Below, piece after piece: positions 2,844 through 10,742 of a DNA stretch of 13,596 nucleotides (its first letter is position 1; each line of letters opens with the position of its first letter). The stretch lies in assembly GCA_003157295.1 (NCBI GenBank), contig PMJF01000009.1, positions 2,475 through 16,070 of the forward strand. Reading direction: 5' to 3'. The position numbers and the translations under genes are program-made. This stretch comes from Candidatus Moraniibacteriota bacterium. Lineage in GTDB: Bacteria > Patescibacteriota > Minisyncoccia > Moranbacterales > UBA11712. A model generated the notes under the pieces. It saw only the letters and a list, made by a program, of their open reading frames with translations, was not told the origin of the DNA and did not search any database.

Positions 2844-3203
2844 ATGGAACCTTTGAGAATGGTATTGGTGGAAATTGGCGGACAGCAGGAGTTCTCTGAT
2901 AAGATCGCTGAGGCGGCAAGACTCTATAAGGAGGGTCTATTCGATAAAGTTTACCTTCTAGGAGGGAGTTTTAGCCAGCTACATTATGCGAGTAGGGATT
3001 GCAAACGTCATGGCGTCCCCACTAAGGATGTGGTTAACGATGAACCGAGTCTCGCTGCTTTCATTAAGGATTGTGAGAGAGGAGTCAGGCTCATAGTAGT
3101 AATCACGTCTTGGTTGAGATATGTGAAAACATGGTACATATTCAGGCAGTATCCGGAATGGGTCTGGACCCCAATCGAGTTTCATATTGCAGGTATAATA
3201 TGA
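2844..3203 (+). CDS. Short YdcF/DUF218-like protein
   Basis: A 119-residue cytoplasmic-looking protein with no signal peptide or membrane helix. Its order of motifs fits the DUF218 (YdcF/SanA/ElyC) fold: a first beta strand (MVLVEIGG), then 'AARLYKEGLFDKVYLLGGS', 'HYASRDCKRHGVPTKDVVND', and 'RLIVVITSWLRYVKTWYIFRQ'. The last corresponds to the family's 'VTS.yH..Ra...f' segment. DUF218 proteins are usually longer, often membrane-bound and linked to envelope or nucleotide-binding roles. The biochemical activity of this short form is unknown. Codons such as AGG, CTA and GTA are commoner here than in guaA, and the strong SD is also unlike its neighbours, hinting at separate origin or high expression. 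A large hairpin and a terminator follow, so it is probably transcribed alone or as the tail of the guaA transcript. Confidence 0.8.
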   Translation: MEPLRMVLVEIGGQQEFSDKIAEAARLYKEGLFDKVYLLGGSFSQLHYASRDCKRHGVPTKDVVNDEPSLAAFIKDCERGVRLIVVITSWLRYVKTWYIFRQYPEWVWTPIEFHIAGII

Positions 3204-3230
3204 GACATGAGCTAAGAGCGACAAGTATAC

Positions 3231-3262
3231 GGGGGCTGGTCCTAAAATTTGGAACAGCCTCC
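3231..3262 (+). other. Long RNA hairpin downstream of the DUF218-like gene
   Basis: GGGGGCTG (3231-3238) pairs with CAGCCTCC (3255-3262), with one G-T pair. After one mismatch the stem continues as TCC/GGA around an 8-nt AT loop. There is no T-run after it, so it is not itself a terminator. The terminator comes 22 nt later. It could stabilise the 3' end of the mRNA. Confidence 0.6.
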
Positions 3263-3283
3263 TGGTAATTTTAAGGTTAATAT

Positions 3284-3308
3284 AAATACCCTTTGCGGGT
3301 GTTTTTTT
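3284..3308 (+). terminator. Rho-independent terminator
   Basis: The core stem ACCC/GGGT (3288-3291 with 3297-3300) is extended by a T-G pair and A-T pairs to 3284/3304. It has a 5-nt loop and runs into a run of seven Ts (3302-3308). It ends the transcript of the 2844 gene before the flippase gene. Confidence 0.75.
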
Positions 3309-3351
3309 GTGGCCGGTATGCTAAGATTTTATCAGGGTTTAAGAAATCCAA

Positions 3352-5652: not shown

Positions 5653-5733
5653 TGTCATCCCGCACTTGATGCGGGATCCAGTGGTCTTGAATTAATCGTT
5701 CATTTCTGGATCCCCGCTTTTGCGGGGATGACA
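5653..5733. repeat. Intergenic REP/MITE-like palindromic element, copy 1
   Basis: An 81-bp nested dyad. The left arm has an 8-bp hairpin, ATCCCGCA/TGCGGGAT with a 5-nt loop. The right arm has ATCCCCGC/GCGGGGAT with a TTTT loop. The two arms are also complementary to each other (TGTCATCCC with GGGATGACA, GGATCCAG with CTGGATCC). It fills the gap between the glycosyltransferase and the radical SAM gene. A diverged copy lies at 11689-11790. It may act as a bidirectional terminator. Confidence 0.85.
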
Positions 5734-5775
5734 ATTAATATATTTTCTACAGTAAGCATAATTATTTTTATTTAC

Positions 5776-7266
5776 ATGCTCAAAATATCCATATCTTATC
5801 CGCCGCTCGAATCCAAAAAAGGAACGCCGCTTCTCTCCCAAAATCGGCAGTTTCAGTGGTTTTCCGACCCGACCTATATCTATCCAATGATTCCCGCCTC
5901 GGCCGCGACGCTTCTCAAAGCAAACGGATGTGAAGTTTTTTGGGACGACGCGATCGCGGAAGGTTTGGGCTATAAGGAATGGAAAGAAAGGCTGATCCGC
6001 GAAAAACCGGACGTTGTTGCCATTGAAACCAAGACGCCGGTCGTGAAACGCCATTGGAAAATCATTGATGAACTAAAAAAAGAAAGTTTGGAAATTGGAA
6101 ACCCGCCTGCCGGCGAGGCAGGTTGGAATCCGAAAATTGTCCTGATGGGCGATCATGTTACTGCTCTTCCGGAAGAATCTCTCAAAAATTCGAGAGTTGA
6201 TTATGTGATCGCCGGCGGAGATTATGATTTTATTCTTTTAAATATTGCGAATAAACTTTCGGGCCAAGGGGAATTGGAAGGGGGAGTCTGGTATCGTGAG
6301 GGGGATAAAATTATCGATTCGGGAAAATACGATTTGCAAAAACATTCCCTTGATAACCTCCCACCAATTGACCGCGAACTGACAAAATGGAAATTATACG
6401 CCTATAAAAACGGAAACTACAAATATACTCCCGGATCATATGTTATGAATGCCCGCGACTGCTGGTGGGGGAAATGCACTTTTTGCTCTTGGACAACAAT
6501 GTTTCCGGCAGATATGTGCCGCACGCGCTTGGTCCAAAAGGCGCTTGATGAGATCGGCGCGCTGATAGACTTAGGTGTGAAGGAAATAATGGAAGATTCC
6601 GGAACACTGCCGATCGGAAATTGGCTGAAAGTTTTTTGCGAAGGAATGATTGCGAAGGGATACAACGAAAAAGTTATAATTAGCTGCAATATGCGTCTCA
6701 ATGCGATCAAAGATATCGAAATATGGAAACTGATGAAAAAAGCGGGATTCAGAATGATACTCTTCGGCCTTGAATCTGCAAATCAGGAAACACTTGATAA
6801 GATCAATAAAGGCCTCCAAGTCAAGGAGATCGAGCCGGCGCTCAAAATATGCAAATCTGCCGGACTCGAACCGCACATCACGGTGATGGTCGGCTATCCT
6901 TGGGAAACAAAAAAGGACGTTGAAAATACCCTGAGCTTTTTGAAAAAATTATGGGAATATGGCTATATTGATTCGCTTCAAGCCACGCTCGCCATCCCAT
7001 ATCCCGGCACGCCGCTCTTTAAATATTGCCGAGAGAATGATCTGCTTTTGACAGAAGATTATGACCGTTTCGACCAGCGCGAGCCGGTGATGAAAATGGA
7101 AATGTCCGCCGATGAGCTCAAAAAAATGATCGGCAAACTGTATCGCTCGTTCATCACGCCCAAATTTTTGGCAAAAAAGATCACCGGCATCCGCGGGTGG
7201 CAGGATATAAAACATATCAGCCGGGCAGGCAAAAAAGTCCTCGGCCATCTCACCGATTTTTCTTGA
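5776..7266 (+). CDS. B12-binding-type radical SAM enzyme
   Basis: 496 residues from the ATG at 5776. An in-frame ATG at 5728 lies inside the palindromic element and would add 16 hydrophobic residues, so I prefer 5776, which gives the expected 'KISISYPP' start. Residues ~1-190 resemble the cobalamin-binding Rossmann domain, with 'GDHVTALPEE' matching the GGpHat.lPEE pattern. The radical SAM core follows, with cluster ligands Cys229, Cys234 and Cys237 in 'CWWGKCTFC' (CX4CX2C spacing). 'MEDSGTLP', 'MILFGLESANQETLDKINKG' and 'ITVMVGYPWETKKDVENTL' are typical later core motifs. Such enzymes carry out methylations and other radical reactions. The substrate is unknown, and the glycan context suggests a tailoring step. 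A palindrome-derived insert occupies residues ~108-118. Confidence 0.9.
   Translation: MLKISISYPPLESKKGTPLLSQNRQFQWFSDPTYIYPMIPASAATLLKANGCEVFWDDAIAEGLGYKEWKERLIREKPDVVAIETKTPVVKRHWKIIDELKKESLEIGNPPAGEAGWNPKIVLMGDHVTALPEESLKNSRVDYVIAGGDYDFILLNIANKLSGQGELEGGVWYREGDKIIDSGKYDLQKHSLDNLPPIDRELTKWKLYAYKNGNYKYTPGSYVMNARDCWWGKCTFCSWTTMFPADMCRTRLVQKALDEIGALIDLGVKEIMEDSGTLPIGNWLKVFCEGMIAKGYNEKVIISCNMRLNAIKDIEIWKLMKKAGFRMILFGLESANQETLDKINKGLQVKEIEPALKICKSAGLEPHITVMVGYPWETKKDVENTLSFLKKLWEYGYIDSLQATLAIPYPGTPLFKYCRENDLLLTEDYDRFDQREPVMKMEMSADELKKMIGKLYRSFITPKFLAKKITGIRGWQDIKHISRAGKKVLGHLTDFS
6102..6126 (+). repeat. Short GC-rich palindrome inserted in frame in the radical SAM gene
   Basis: CCTGCC (6106-6111) and GGCAGG (6117-6122) form a 6-bp stem around GGCGA. 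It encodes the Pro/Gly/Ala-rich stretch NPPAGEAGWN between two ordinary parts of the B12-like domain. The composition is far more GC-rich than its surroundings, and the frame is preserved. Confidence 0.65.
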
Positions 7267-7291
7267 TACTAAGGGCGTTTTAGGATAGAAT
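7263..7291 (+). promoter_or_regulatory. Promoter for the structured RNA
   Basis: TTGATA (7263-7268), a 17-nt spacer and TAGAAT (7286-7291) predict a start near 7298. The -35 box overlaps the TGA of the radical SAM gene. The layout, including the spacer end TTTTAGGATAG, resembles the promoter at 8113-8141. A second, weaker candidate (TTGAAG 7334-7339, 17 nt, TTTTAA 7357-7362) would start almost exactly at the first helix (7370). Confidence 0.6.
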
Positions 7292-7369
7292 AGAGATAAT
7301 AAATTAGCCATGTTATTTTTCCAACATTAAATATTGAAGTTTTGTTATATTCGCTCTTTTAAGAACTTT

Positions 7370-7733
7370 GCGGGATTTATGGGTTCTACCTTCCGACACT
7401 CACCCCGGTTGGAAGGCATTAGACCCAGGGGAAATCCTGCGAGGAGAGCTCATTTATCGAGTTCAAAAAAACTATTCCTAGCTGTCTTCTCAAGGGGAGC
7501 GGAGGAGACATGATCACTGGAATAGAAAAAGAACTTACGTCTTCCCGTGACGAAACCGATAAATGAGTCTCGAACCATCCTGATTTGACCGCTGAAGCAG
7601 TTAGCTTGGCGGTGAGCATCGCCTTCATTTTACTGAAGGAGCCTCATGCGCGGATTGACCATCCGCACGTCAAAAGGGTGGCAACACCGAGGGGGTAGTG
7701 GCTCATTGGCCGGGACACTACCCCCTTTTTTTT
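7370..7733 (+). ncRNA. Structured non-coding RNA of unknown class
   Basis: This stretch lacks a convincing plus-strand gene but is packed with complementary helices. P1 is 7370-7378/7432-7440 (9 bp), enclosing 7389-7394/7411-7416 (CCTTCC/GGAAGG). P2 is 7444-7459/7557-7571 (15 bp with one bulged G), enclosing 7472-7478/7519-7525, 7483-7491/7502-7510 and a small hairpin 7538-7541/7549-7552. Then come hairpins at 7588-7613, 7622-7639 and 7650-7666, a GGTG-GCAA-CACC hairpin with a GNRA loop (7677-7688), and a terminator. The helices nest without conflict. The transcript may begin near 7298, giving about 435 nt, or near 7370. I see none of the conserved cores of RNase P RNA, tmRNA, SRP RNA or 6S RNA. 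It could be a free RNA or an attenuating leader, but its own terminator and the 478-nt gap to the next plus-strand gene favour a free RNA. Confidence 0.65.
7691..7733 (+). terminator. Strong terminator of the structured RNA
   Basis: A perfect 10-bp stem (GGGGGTAGTG 7691-7700 with CACTACCCCC 7716-7725) has a 15-nt loop and is followed by eight Ts (7726-7733). It is the strongest terminator in the window. Confidence 0.92.
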
Positions 7734-7746
7734 CTTGATAAAATAG
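7733..7746. repeat. 14-bp direct repeat, left copy
   Basis: TCTTGATAAAATAG here is identical to 8111-8124. The two copies bracket the small minus-strand gene unit. The right copy forms the -35 region of the dipeptidase promoter. The left copy follows directly on the RNA terminator. Confidence 0.6.
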
Positions 7747-7766
7747 GACGCCCCTGAAAGGCGCCC
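7738..7766 (-). terminator. Terminator of the small minus-strand gene
   Basis: Read on the minus strand, GGGCGCC and GGCGTCC pair over 7 bp with one G-T wobble, followed by TATTTTAT. On the plus strand the same position is an A/C mismatch. The structure is therefore better as a minus-strand RNA, fitting the gene at 7842-7997. Confidence 0.65.
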
Positions 7767-7841
7767 TTTACGTCGAATTCAATTCAGCCGGAATTGTGTT
7801 ACGCTATCTCGTTGTAGCGTTTTTGCGCGGCTCCAAAGAGC

Positions 7842-7997
7842 TTAGCTTTTGGCAGTGCAGCCATTGCATATTCGGCTGCCGCCATTTTTCTGCTTCTTGC
7901 ACGCGGGGCTGCCAAACTGCTGGCCGCATCTGGGCTGACCCTTAGCTCTGCCCTGTTGTGGTCCACGTGGCTGATCAATTTGCCGTTTCTTGCCCAT
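7842..7997 (-). CDS. Small four-cysteine basic protein, 51 residues
   Basis: The frame reads from ATG 7997-7995 to TAA 7844-7842. It is preceded five bases upstream by GGGAGGG, a strong SD. The protein is hydrophilic, rich in Gln, Gly, Lys and Arg, with no membrane helix. Four cysteines are arranged C24-X8-C33-X10-C44-X2-C47 (RCGQQ..., PACKK, RICNGC), which could bind one zinc ion. The basic N-terminus could contact nucleic acid. Both points are inference, and I recognise no family. The unit is complete: a promoter with perfect TTGACA, a leader of about 50 nt, SD, gene and terminator. This arrangement suggests a well-expressed single-gene transcript. A longer frame on the same strand (8029-7799) is in another register and has no SD. 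It converges on the structured RNA. Confidence 0.75.
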   Translation of the reverse strand: MGKKRQIDQPRGPQQGRAKGQPRCGQQFGSPACKKQKNGGSRICNGCTAKS

Positions 7998-8002
7998 ATG
8001 AT

Positions 8003-8009
8003 CCCTCCC
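8003..8009 (-). promoter_or_regulatory. Shine-Dalgarno site of the small gene
   Basis: GGGAGGG on the minus strand lies five bases before ATG 7997. It selects this frame over the overlapping longer frame. Confidence 0.75.
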
Positions 8010-8053
8010 GTCCAAAGGTTAATAATCAATAAGGGTAAGTAAAGATTATTATA

Positions 8054-8082: not shown

Positions 8083-8110
8083 TAAATGACCGGATATAAA
8101 ATTTGATTTA

Positions 8111-8124
8111 TCTTGATAAAATAG
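8111..8124. repeat. 14-bp direct repeat, right copy
   Basis: This copy is identical to 7733-7746 (TCTTGATAAAATAG), 378 bp away, with the small-gene unit between them. It may be the footprint of an insertion or a duplicated promoter fragment. Confidence 0.6.
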
Positions 8125-8141
8125 CCATTTTGGGATAGGAT
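8113..8141 (+). promoter_or_regulatory. Promoter of the dipeptidase gene
   Basis: TTGATA (8113-8118), a 17-nt spacer and TAGGAT (8136-8141) put the start near 8148, giving a leader of about 63 nt that contains a hairpin. It shares TTGATA and the TTTT.GGATAG.ATAG.G stretch with the RNA promoter at 7263-7291. Confidence 0.65.
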
Positions 8142-8174
8142 AGGGGCGAGTTTAGACTAAGATATCCATTCTTT

Positions 8175-8210: not shown

Positions 8211-8891
8211 ATGAAAAATTTTTATAAACTCGACGGCTCTGAAGTGCAAAAAATACCGATTCAAGAATGTGGCGAAGAGATGGCAGATATTTTAAGAGAA
8301 AACGCAAGCATTGTTGTGGCAACGGAAAAAGATTATTCGCAAATTATCTCCTTTCCTTTCAGCTCTTTTTTGCGAAAGTCTGTGATCGATAAATTATCCC
8401 GGGCCCAGAAGCGTCTTCCTGAGGGAATTAAATTCAAAATTCTTGAAGGTTATCGTTCCATCGCGGTTCAGAAAATGTTATTTGAAGAGCGCAAAGAACG
8501 TTTAGCCAAGAAACATCCCGATTGGAATGAAAAACGATTGAATCAAGAGACAGCTTTATTCATTGCACCATGGAATAATACCCCGCCTCATTCAACAGGT
8601 GGCGCTTTTGACTTGACTTTGGAAACAGATCGCGGGGAAGAACTCGATATGGGAACAGATCTTGGCAAAGTATATGATGATATATTCGATGATACTTGTT
8701 TTACGGATGCGGCAGTCTTGCAGAAAGCTCGAAAGAATCGTCAAATGTTAATATCCGTCTTAGCAAAGGAAGGATTTGTAAACTATCCTGCTGAATGGTG
8801 GCATTGGTCTTACGGAGACAGATACTGGGCTTTGTTGAGTAAAAGATCCCACGCAATTTATGGAAGCGCAATAGTGCCAACAAAAGAATAG
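8211..8891 (+). CDS. D-alanyl-D-alanine dipeptidase (VanX/DdpX type, peptidase M15D)
   Basis: This zinc enzyme hydrolyses D-Ala-D-Ala. In other bacteria it serves vancomycin resistance (VanX) or D-Ala recycling (DdpX). The 226 residues carry all key sites. 'EGYRS' gives Arg82, the transition-state arginine. 'HSTGGAFDLTL' gives zinc ligands His127 and Asp134. 'EWWHW' gives catalytic Glu195 and zinc ligand His198. There is no signal peptide or membrane helix, so a cytoplasmic enzyme is likely, as for VanX. No vanH, vanA or two-component genes are visible, so resistance cannot be inferred. Nutrient use of D-Ala-D-Ala or peptidoglycan turnover is equally possible. The gene has its own promoter and terminator and is flanked by two related hairpins. 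No good SD precedes the ATG. Confidence 0.92.
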   Translation: MKNFYKLDGSEVQKIPIQECGEEMADILRENASIVVATEKDYSQIISFPFSSFLRKSVIDKLSRAQKRLPEGIKFKILEGYRSIAVQKMLFEERKERLAKKHPDWNEKRLNQETALFIAPWNNTPPHSTGGAFDLTLETDRGEELDMGTDLGKVYDDIFDDTCFTDAAVLQKARKNRQMLISVLAKEGFVNYPAEWWHWSYGDRYWALLSKRSHAIYGSAIVPTKE

Positions 8892-8999: not shown

Positions 9000-10742
9000 C
9001 TAATTGCCTTGCGCTTTTGCTTCGATCACTTTCAGATTATTCTGAAGCTGTGGGTTTTGCGGATCAATTTCGAGGGCTTTTTTCATATTTTCCAGCGCTT
9101 TTTGGAAATCTCCCGCATTAAAATAAATTTGTGCCAAGTTTTGATAGGACTGCCAGAGCTTCGGATTGATGCTCAAAGCCTTTTGGTAATTCTCGATGGC
9201 TGCGTCACTTTGATTCATTTGCTCGTAGGTGTTGGCGAGATTATGGTAGGCATCCGCATAATTTGGATTGATCTCGATGGCTGTTTTGAATTCTTCCACG
9301 GCTTTTGGCAGATCTCCCTGCCGAGAATAAACGTCTCCCAAATTATTGTGGATCTGTTGGCCGGAAGGGGCGACTTGGGCGGTGGCGATCCAGAGGGTGT
9401 CCTCGCTTTTCCAGTCTTTGTTGCGAAAGATCGTCCGGATGGATAAAGAGGCGATGATCACTGTCAGAAGGAAATACCCGATCATTTTGGCGTTCTCGTT
9501 CAATTTGAGAATTCTGTCGAACAGCATCGCCACAACGACAATGATCCCCAATGTCCCGAGATAGACATATCTCTCCGCCACGATCCAGGAAATTTTGAAA
9601 GGGGTTAGAGTGGGGAGAAGCGTGACGATGAAGAAAACCAGCCAGAAAAAAACATTCTTGTTTCTGAAATAACTCCAAATGACCGTGCCCAAGAAAAAAA
9701 GAGAGATCAAAAGAAGAACGATGTATTGGGCTTGGGAAAAAGCCATCTCGGTTTGATAAAGCGTGAGCGCGGCCGGCCAGAAGATCAGTTTCAGGTATGA
9801 TCCGACGGCCACCGGGATCTGAACCAACGGATTATACATCCCGCCTCCCGCTTGGTATGACTGCGACTCGACAGCGGAGACCCGATATCCGATCTTAAAC
9901 GCATATATTATTAAAAGAAAAACACTTATTGAAAAAAAGGGCAATATTTTTTTCCAATTATATTTGAGGCTGCTGAAAGACAGCTCATAAAGCGCGAAAA
10001 CCAAAAAAAGCGCCATTGCTTTTTCTGAAGAAAGAATGGCCAGAAGGAAAAAAAAGACCGAATAGCGGAAATATTTCTTGTTGCTATCGGAAAAAAGATA
10101 GAATAGAAACGAGAGCAGAAAGAAAAAGGCGTACATTGAATACAGGCCTCCGGAGATCCAGGAAACCGATTCAGTGAGAATGGGATGAACAGCGAAAAGA
10201 GAAGCAGTGATGATAGCCACCCGCTTGTTCATGGATAGAGTGAGCAGCAGATAGATCAGCGCCACGCACCCGAGATGAAAGAAAATATTGATTATCCGAA
10301 AAGTGAAAGGATGGAGACCGCCGATATGAAAGGCAAAAAACTGGAAAAAAGCCGAGAGTGAAAAATGCATAGGACCGCCAAAAACGCTGGAAAAATGCCC
10401 AATATTTTCATTTTTGGCAAAACCGGCGATATCGTCAGACACGAATCCGTTGAAAAAAGAATTGGCATAAGAAACGAAAACCAGGAGAGCCAGATATGCC
10501 AGAATGAGGCGATTTTCACGCACAAAATGCAAAAAACTGAAAGAGGCGGTCGTTTGATCGGTAGTTGACCTGGCTGCATGCTGATTTTTCATGAATTTAT
10601 CGTACTTTTCCCGCGACCATTTTTTCTTGAGATAATCCAAAACATCGTTTTCGGGAAGCCCCAGATCGCCGGCGATCTTTGAGACCGAATAATGCCGAAG
10701 ATTCCTTTTTATATAATTTTTCTGGGAGTTGTCGAGGCCCAT
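9000..10742 (-). CDS. TMTC-like polytopic membrane protein with TPRs and N-terminal HTH-like segment
   Basis: 580 residues. Residues ~8-42 ('YIKRNLRHYSVSKIAGDLGLPENDVLDYLKKKW') look like a helix-turn-helix. Residues ~75-440 hold about ten membrane helices. The first outside loop has Asp103-Asp104 (GFVSDDIAGF), the position of the acidic pair in GT-C glycosyltransferases. 'FAVHPILTESVSWISG' (183-198) matches the HP..TE.V.W..G motif of TMTC/DUF1736 proteins, which in eukaryotes are O-mannosyltransferases. Residues ~460-575 form three or more tetratricopeptide repeats (DAYHNLANTYEQMNQSDAAIENYQKAL and two like it). I infer a glycosyltransferase using a polyprenyl-phosphate sugar, or a related envelope protein. 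Donor and target are unknown. It has its own promoter and lies opposite the flanking glycan genes. Confidence 0.85.
   Translation of the reverse strand: MGLDNSQKNYIKRNLRHYSVSKIAGDLGLPENDVLDYLKKKWSREKYDKFMKNQHAARSTTDQTTASFSFLHFVRENRLILAYLALLVFVSYANSFFNGFVSDDIAGFAKNENIGHFSSVFGGPMHFSLSAFFQFFAFHIGGLHPFTFRIINIFFHLGCVALIYLLLTLSMNKRVAIITASLFAVHPILTESVSWISGGLYSMYAFFFLLSFLFYLFSDSNKKYFRYSVFFFLLAILSSEKAMALFLVFALYELSFSSLKYNWKKILPFFSISVFLLIIYAFKIGYRVSAVESQSYQAGGGMYNPLVQIPVAVGSYLKLIFWPAALTLYQTEMAFSQAQYIVLLLISLFFLGTVIWSYFRNKNVFFWLVFFIVTLLPTLTPFKISWIVAERYVYLGTLGIIVVVAMLFDRILKLNENAKMIGYFLLTVIIASLSIRTIFRNKDWKSEDTLWIATAQVAPSGQQIHNNLGDVYSRQGDLPKAVEEFKTAIEINPNYADAYHNLANTYEQMNQSDAAIENYQKALSINPKLWQSYQNLAQIYFNAGDFQKALENMKKALEIDPQNPQLQNNLKVIEAKAQGN

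What the first reader, a model, noticed from the sequence alone, without database searches (positions are those of the whole stretch)
7263..7733. Unrecognised structured RNA of about 365-435 nt with its own promoter and terminator
The sequence shows at least nine compatible helices, including a 15-bp helix closed over about 97 nt (7444-7459/7557-7571), a 9-bp helix (7370-7378/7432-7440), a GNRA hairpin and a perfect 10-bp terminator with eight Ts. No plus-strand gene explains them. I looked for the conserved cores of RNase P RNA, tmRNA, SRP RNA, 6S RNA, hammerhead ribozymes and T-boxes and found none convincing. Such a large RNA in a small-genome bacterium is unlikely to be dispensable junk.
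Basis: partly seen in the sequence, partly recalled or inferred. Interest (0 to 1): 0.75.

Follow-up and report, generated by a model that had tools for sequence, protein, structure and literature searches.

The report
Orphan structured RNA, own terminator
A stretch between two genes of a small-genome bacterium very probably makes a tightly folded RNA of about 436 letters that matches no known RNA family and was not found in any relative searched, so it looks like a real but lineage-specific RNA gene whose job is unknown.

Summary
Window 7298-7733 (+) looks like a free-standing RNA gene: promoter TTGATA-17-TAGAAT, an AU-rich leader, three independently folding domains (7366-7444, 7446-7571, 7575-7681) and an 11-bp intrinsic terminator with eight Ts. 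The core folds at z about -5.7 against dinucleotide shuffles, as strongly as this genome's RNase P RNA (-5.4) and more strongly than its tmRNA (-4.0). Rfam gives nothing; RNase P RNA and tmRNA lie elsewhere in the genome. blastn (93, 128, 383 genomes) and a covariance model (383, 379, 33 genomes; sets overlap) return only the window itself apart from short matches taken as noise. In G001, G003 and G004, of three genera, the flanking radical SAM and TPR genes are direct neighbours, so the RNA, a small ORF region and a VanY-type gene are an extra block here. It is an accessory orphan, not a housekeeping RNA. Covariation and expression could not be tested. Most likely use: a trans-acting RNA that scaffolds or titrates a protein (inferred, weak).

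The parts
7263..7291 (+). promoter TTGATA-17-TAGAAT; overlaps the stop codon of the upstream radical SAM gene; expected transcription start about 7298
   Evidence: 10 of 12; the same layout stands before the VanY-type gene at 8113-8141, in a G005 locus (by eye) and over the stop codon of the G007 orthologue (by eye)
7298..7365 (+). AU-rich 5' leader without stable structure (22% GC over 7298-7361)
7366..7444 (+). domain 1: 7366-7378/7432-7444, 7380-7384/7423-7427, 7386-7388/7420-7422, 7389-7397/7408-7416, loop 7398-7407
   Evidence: z -4.58 for 7364-7443
7446..7571 (+). domain 2: 7446-7448/7569-7571 + 7449-7459/7557-7567; inside it 7460-7464/7531-7535, 7472-7478/7519-7525, 7483-7491/7502-7510, and hairpin 7538-7541/7549-7552
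   Evidence: z -4.82 for 7444-7574
7575..7681 (+). domain 3: 7575-7581/7675-7681 + 7584-7589/7669-7674 closing three hairpins (7590-7611, 7612-7647, 7650-7666)
   Evidence: z -3.52 for 7575-7684
7677..7688 (+). alternative GNRA hairpin GGUG-GCAA-CACC that competes with the closing helix of domain 3
   Evidence: closing pair probability 0.08
7690..7733 (+). intrinsic terminator: perfect 11-bp stem (7690-7700/7716-7726) and eight Ts; 3' end of the RNA
7745..7767 (-). context, not part of the RNA: terminator-like site of the opposite strand, back to back with the RNA's own

Best explanation
A free-standing gene for a non-coding RNA of about 436 nt (7298-7733, +). RNA polymerase starts at the promoter that overlaps the stop codon of the radical SAM gene and stops at the terminator at 7733. 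The product has a floppy AU-rich 5' tail and three compact domains in a row. It is an accessory RNA that this species has and its sampled relatives lack. Shown by computation: promoter and terminator sequence, non-random fold, absence from Rfam and from the searched relatives. Inferred: that it is transcribed, and from this strand. Inferred and weak (about 0.3): it works in trans as a protein-binding scaffold or sponge, that is, as the RNA part of an RNP or a regulator. About two thirds of the core is paired (111 pairs in 329 positions) and the rest sits in short loops and joints, which suits protein binding better than long antisense pairing, and it ends before any co-directional gene it could control in cis.
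For: Fold far beyond chance. Core ensemble better defined than 100 of 100 shuffles. Plus strand folds better than minus (core z -5.77 against -3.51), and only the plus strand ends in a T-run. z as strong as that of this genome's RNase P RNA (-5.39, reverse complement of the locus stretch, oriented by eye) and stronger than that of its tmRNA (-3.99). The promoter resembles the VanY-type gene's: 39 nt at 77%; composite pattern 2 hits against 0.01 expected (a pattern I wrote from these two sites, so partly circular). Core GC 49.5% against 43.7% for the window, the GC-rich-intergenic signature of structured RNAs (PMC8632094, abstract seen). No PHROG match for any plus frame of 7362-7705 read through its stops nor for the 69-aa minus ORF, and one Pfam match far below cut-off (12.1 bits against 30.9, E 0.15).
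Against: No homologue, hence no covariation. No expression data. Absence from all other searched genomes would also fit a young, non-functional sequence. The reverse strand folds beyond chance too, so the fold alone does not set the strand; and with leader and terminator included the ensemble is less clear-cut (2 of 60 shuffles as narrow). The scaffold role rests on anatomy only; loop-loop complementarity, which might have hinted at a tertiary fold, is no better than chance (2098 of 3000 shuffles).
Confidence: 0.6

Rival explanations
1. It is the structured 3' untranslated region of the radical SAM mRNA. The terminator at 7733 ends that mRNA, and the structured part is made only, or mainly, as its tail, perhaps released by processing.
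For: The scan lists no plus-strand terminator between the radical SAM stop (7266) and 7608, and the RNA's promoter overlaps that stop codon, so some read-through is likely.
Against: The radical SAM orthologues in G001, G003, G004, G006 and G007 have no such 3' region (two of five, the other three; best blastn E 1.4). A promoter of the same layout as VanY's stands right in front.
Confidence: 0.13
2. It is a diverged member of a known RNA class that Rfam's models no longer recognise.
For: Size and multi-domain form resemble known large RNAs; members of known classes can be missed in very divergent bacteria (inference).
Against: No match near threshold at E up to 10 on the 496-nt stretch. RNase P RNA and tmRNA are present elsewhere in the genome, and the loci holding them are not among the 25 best blastn matches of the candidate to the fetched loci.
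Confidence: 0.1
3. It is a cis-acting leader (riboswitch or attenuator) whose terminator decides read-through into the VanY-type gene at 8211.
For: Promoter, structured region, terminator, next co-directional gene; an alternative hairpin (GGUG-GCAA-CACC) competes with a domain helix. The RNA and the VanY-type gene belong to the same extra block.
Against: About 480 nt, an opposing terminator-like site (7745-7767, -) and a separate promoter at 8113 lie between the terminator and that gene.
Confidence: 0.06
4. It is non-functional DNA (decayed gene or foreign scrap) that folds well by accident.
For: No relative found anywhere searched; it lies in an extra block absent from relatives. One plus frame has few stops (3 in 114 codons from 7363).
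Against: Core z of -5.7, 0 of 300 shuffles; three domains independently significant; promoter and perfect terminator bracket it. Open frames show no family and tblastn of that frame finds no relative in the phage collection.
Confidence: 0.11

Closest known systems
OLE, ROOL and GOLLD ('ornate' large bacterial RNAs; PMC12286853, abstract and Main section seen)
   Same: large, elaborately folded bacterial or phage RNAs of poorly understood function
   Different: no Rfam match to any such family here; they are families defined by covariation, this is a single sequence; self-assembly was not testable
ModT ('raiA motif') RNA (PMC11706538, abstract and section list seen)
   Same: structured non-coding RNA; the paper's section headings say it acts in trans, and its abstract gives initial evidence for a possible association with proteins
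   Different: ModT is reported there in more than 2,500 species of Bacillota and Actinomycetota; this RNA was found in one genome only and does not match an Rfam family
Novel structured RNAs from GC-rich intergenic regions (PMC8632094, abstract and section list seen)
   Same: long, GC-enriched intergenic region encoding a structured RNA
   Different: those motifs come from comparative sequence analysis; here no relative was found to compare
RNase P RNA and tmRNA
   Same: size (about 400 nt), strength of fold
   Different: both are present elsewhere in this genome and conserved in its family; this RNA is not

Membership tests
Bacterial RNase P RNA (RF00010) | match to the family's covariance model | tested here: not met
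   no match at 7250-7745 with E up to 10; the genome's own copy is G000:C12:15680-16136, 170.7 bits
tmRNA (RF00023) | match to the family's model / ARAGORN call | tested here: not met
   none in the window; the genome's own copy is G000:C2:147-544, 146.1 bits
Any of 4227 Rfam 15 families (the library covers, as I recall, SRP, 6S, T-box, introns, ribozymes, OLE, ROOL, GOLLD, HEARO) | match at or near the gathering score | tested here: not met
   6 sub-threshold matches, highest 17.5 bits against a cut-off of 50 and on the other strand
Cis-acting riboswitch / attenuator | co-directional gene directly behind the structured region | tested here: not met
   opposing terminator-like site and ORF region behind it; next + gene at 8211 has its own promoter-like site
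Stand-alone structured non-coding RNA | own promoter and terminator | tested here: met
   sequence level only
Stand-alone structured non-coding RNA | fold beyond chance | tested here: met
Stand-alone structured non-coding RNA | covariation across homologues | not testable with these tools
   no homologue found
Stand-alone structured non-coding RNA | transcript with the predicted ends | not testable with these tools
   no RNA-seq available
Ornate self-assembling RNA (OLE/ROOL/GOLLD-like) | kissing loops / intermolecular contacts | tested here: inconclusive
   best loop-loop pairing (4-5 bp) reached by 2098 of 3000 shuffles of the loop letters

The most novel reading that the evidence does not exclude
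A new class of large structured RNA, so far seen in one genome, carried in a small extra block next to a VanY-type peptidase gene and acting as the core of an RNP or as a ribozyme of a kind not in Rfam.
Probability: 0.25. Interest if true: 0.65.

Novelty: new member of a known kind. Interest (0 to 1): 0.42.

Why it matters
If real, it adds a roughly 436-nt structured RNA without family to an organism with a genome of about 1 Mb, and shows that such RNAs can be accessory and lineage-restricted, so that comparative (covariation) screens, which need homologues, miss them by design. A single-sequence signal as strong as that of the same genome's RNase P RNA makes it directly testable.

Tried and rejected
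Known families: Rfam at lax thresholds gave nothing credible. Housekeeping RNA: rejected, since RNase P RNA and tmRNA are elsewhere, and blastn with them hits every relative given (7 relatives' loci for RNase P RNA, 6 for tmRNA; G002's weak tmRNA match was not given), best E per relative from 5e-176 to 1e-7 with the database size set to 1 Mb.

Synteny: the radical SAM gene is conserved, but the RNA is not behind it in G001, G003, G004, G006 or G007. In one search I read the wrong side of the gene for G003, G004 and G007, because loci of minus-strand matches are not turned; one search repeated it on the right side.

Homologue hunting: blastn in phages and plasmids, single-sequence covariance model R1, one seed scan of genome contigs (42 loci) and six scans of viral contigs (11 loci; one search matched 15 stretches, none confirmed). 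R1 on all 53 of these loci gave one match of 7.8 bits, E 3.4. Weak blastn hits (apart from the window itself: 6 of 93 genomes, 5 of 128, 5 of 383) are short. The best, L138 (E 1.2e-4), lies inside an open frame that looks like a sugar-transferase gene (motif recalled), the next, L139, inside a 459-aa open frame of the opposite strand; L140-L142 were only scored with R1. With filters off the best R1 score in L138-L142 is 10.7 bits, away from the blastn hit. Taken as noise.

Mobile unit: direct repeats TTTTTCTTGATA (7257-7268, 7729-7740) and CTTGATAAAATAG (7734-7746, 8112-8124) suggested insertion ends, but the motif is only slightly enriched in the genome (21 against 15 for the reversed control), the first copy is the native end of the radical SAM gene, and some similar sites elsewhere look like promoters, so I take two of the three as promoter elements and leave the middle one open. 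Kissing loops: no better than chance. Hidden gene: no family for any plus frame; the 69-aa minus ORF shares too few words with any of 5.77 billion proteins to give a candidate.

Literature: seven searches, seen as listings; no listed title is about this RNA or a structured-RNA survey of this group. Two passages of PMC11665869 on riboswitch tools were seen.

Full report
What is there. The window lies at G000:C71:2475-16070, in a genome of 1,019,217 bases in 84 contigs, about 90% complete. Behind a radical SAM gene (5728-7266, +) lies 7267-7740, without a recognised gene on either strand. It carries TTGATA-17-TAGAAT at 7263-7291, so a transcript would start near 7298, and ends with a perfect 11-bp stem plus eight Ts at 7733. 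The expected RNA is about 436 nt long.

Is the fold real? The core 7362-7690 has an MFE of -125.5 kcal/mol against -93.6 +/- 5.6 in 300 dinucleotide shuffles, z -5.67, none as low; each of the three domains is significant alone and the leader is not. The core ensemble is narrow: mean base-pair distance per nt 0.077 against 0.233 +/- 0.068, 0 of 100 shuffles; for 7298-7733 it is 0.135, reached by 2 of 60 shuffles. As a yardstick, the RNase P RNA of the same genome has z -5.39 (reverse complement of the locus stretch, oriented by eye; -5.13 the other way) and its tmRNA z -3.99 by the same script, the candidate core -5.77, and the candidate's reverse complement -3.51 (60 shuffles each). The whole reverse strand 7298-7736 has z -4.61. 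In a scan of 178 windows of the 13.6 kb on both strands the candidate is the extreme.

Orientation and autonomy. The minus strand has no T-run at the corresponding end, and a minus-strand terminator-like site (7745-7767) stands between it and the ORFs to the right. The promoter is matched by that of the VanY-type gene (7255-7293 against 8105-8143, 77% over 39 nt), by one in a G005 locus (by eye), and by TTGACA-17-CAGAAT over the same stop codon in the G007 orthologue (by eye), so it is of a type used in this lineage.

Which RNA is it? Rfam finds nothing within 7263-7733 at E up to 5 in the whole-window search and only six matches far below cut-off at E up to 10 in the stretch itself. RNase P RNA is elsewhere in the genome (matches in 8 of 8 family genomes, over Rfam's cut-off in 6), and so is tmRNA (over the cut-off in 7 of 8).

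Who else has it? blastn with 7300-7740 in 93 relatives: 7 of 93 genomes match, one being the window itself; the other six are 20-34 nt with E of 0.0029 or more. With 7362-7700 in 128 genomes of the order: 6 of 128 including itself, others E 0.0059 or more. In 383 genomes of the class: 6 of 383 including itself, others E 1.2e-4 to 0.0091; the two best lie inside open frames and none of the five is backed by the covariance model. A covariance model built from the single sequence and its MFE structure finds only the window: 1 of 383 in the class, 1 of 379 in the phylum (both with strict filters), 1 of 33 relatives with lax filters and E up to 5. These sets overlap. A single-sequence model is less sensitive than a family model, so distant relatives could be missed. 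Close ones are unlikely to be: RNase P RNA and tmRNA of this genome are found by blastn in every relative given, 7 and 6 of them. No match in phages or plasmids. A 17-base seed in about 85,000 species genomes gave 42 loci, none supported by the model.

Setting. In G001 (same genus), G003 and G004 (other genera of the family) the radical SAM gene is followed within roughly 100 nt by the end of an opposing TPR gene, the relative (62-77% identical) of the one at 9000-10742 in the window; in G006 and G007 other sequence follows, again without the RNA (blastn of the RNA against the five downstream stretches, best E 1.4). So the RNA, a small ORF region and the VanY-type gene, about 1.7 kb, are an extra block in an otherwise shared neighbourhood, most simply gained in this lineage. 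The VanY-type protein is missing from the other seven family genomes and found in 10 of 118 genomes of the order, counting this one.

What it does. Not shown. It is not a leader of a downstream gene in any simple way, because a terminator, an opposing terminator-like site and a separate promoter intervene. It could be the tail of the radical SAM mRNA, but the five orthologues looked at lack it. With about two thirds of the core paired and the free letters in an AU-rich leader, short loops and joints, a protein-binding scaffold, sponge or RNP core is the likeliest class of function; I put about 0.3 on that step, and about 0.8 on the RNA being a real transcribed structured RNA. I found no sign of kissing contacts beyond chance, and covariation is untestable for want of homologues.

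Verdict. A sound observation and a credible, unclassified RNA gene of narrow distribution. It is a new member of a known kind (stand-alone structured bacterial RNA), of moderate interest, with a small chance of being the first sighting of a new class.

Noticed in passing
7799-8029 (-): Two overlapping small ORFs (51 aa, basic and Cys-rich, with a GGGAGGG site before its ATG; and 76 aa in another frame). A database protein (P0005) starts in the 51-aa frame with 21 identical residues and then runs into the other frame, so the reading frame is not preserved between copies (or one is a sequencing error); neither is a secure gene. No Pfam or NCBIfam match for the 51-aa frame.
   Followed up: partly
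8211-8891 (+): VanY/VanX-type M15 peptidase gene, not found in the seven other genomes of the family; a second, 35% identical copy lies at G000:C57:3083-3736.
   Followed up: partly
7257-7268, 7729-7746, 8107-8124: Short direct repeats (TTTTTCTTGATA / CTTGATAAAATAG) at the start of the RNA unit, just after its terminator and at the VanY-type promoter; the middle copy has no -10 box in place and is unexplained.
   Followed up: partly
5653-5733: Palindromic intergenic element: two GC-rich hairpins with mirrored ends (GTCATCCCGC...GGATCCAG / CTGGATCCCCGC...GGGGATGAC), like dispersed palindromic repeats of other bacteria (resemblance recalled); copies elsewhere not searched.
   Followed up: no
3001-3329 (+): Second-lowest folding z of the window scan (-4.9), spanning the 3' part of a 119-aa ORF and the intergenic stretch behind it.
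   Followed up: no
7510-7566 and 7646-7738 (+): Two mini-ORFs (18 and 30 codons) inside the RNA, each behind a purine-rich Shine-Dalgarno-like stretch; the second runs through the terminator. Probably chance.
   Followed up: no
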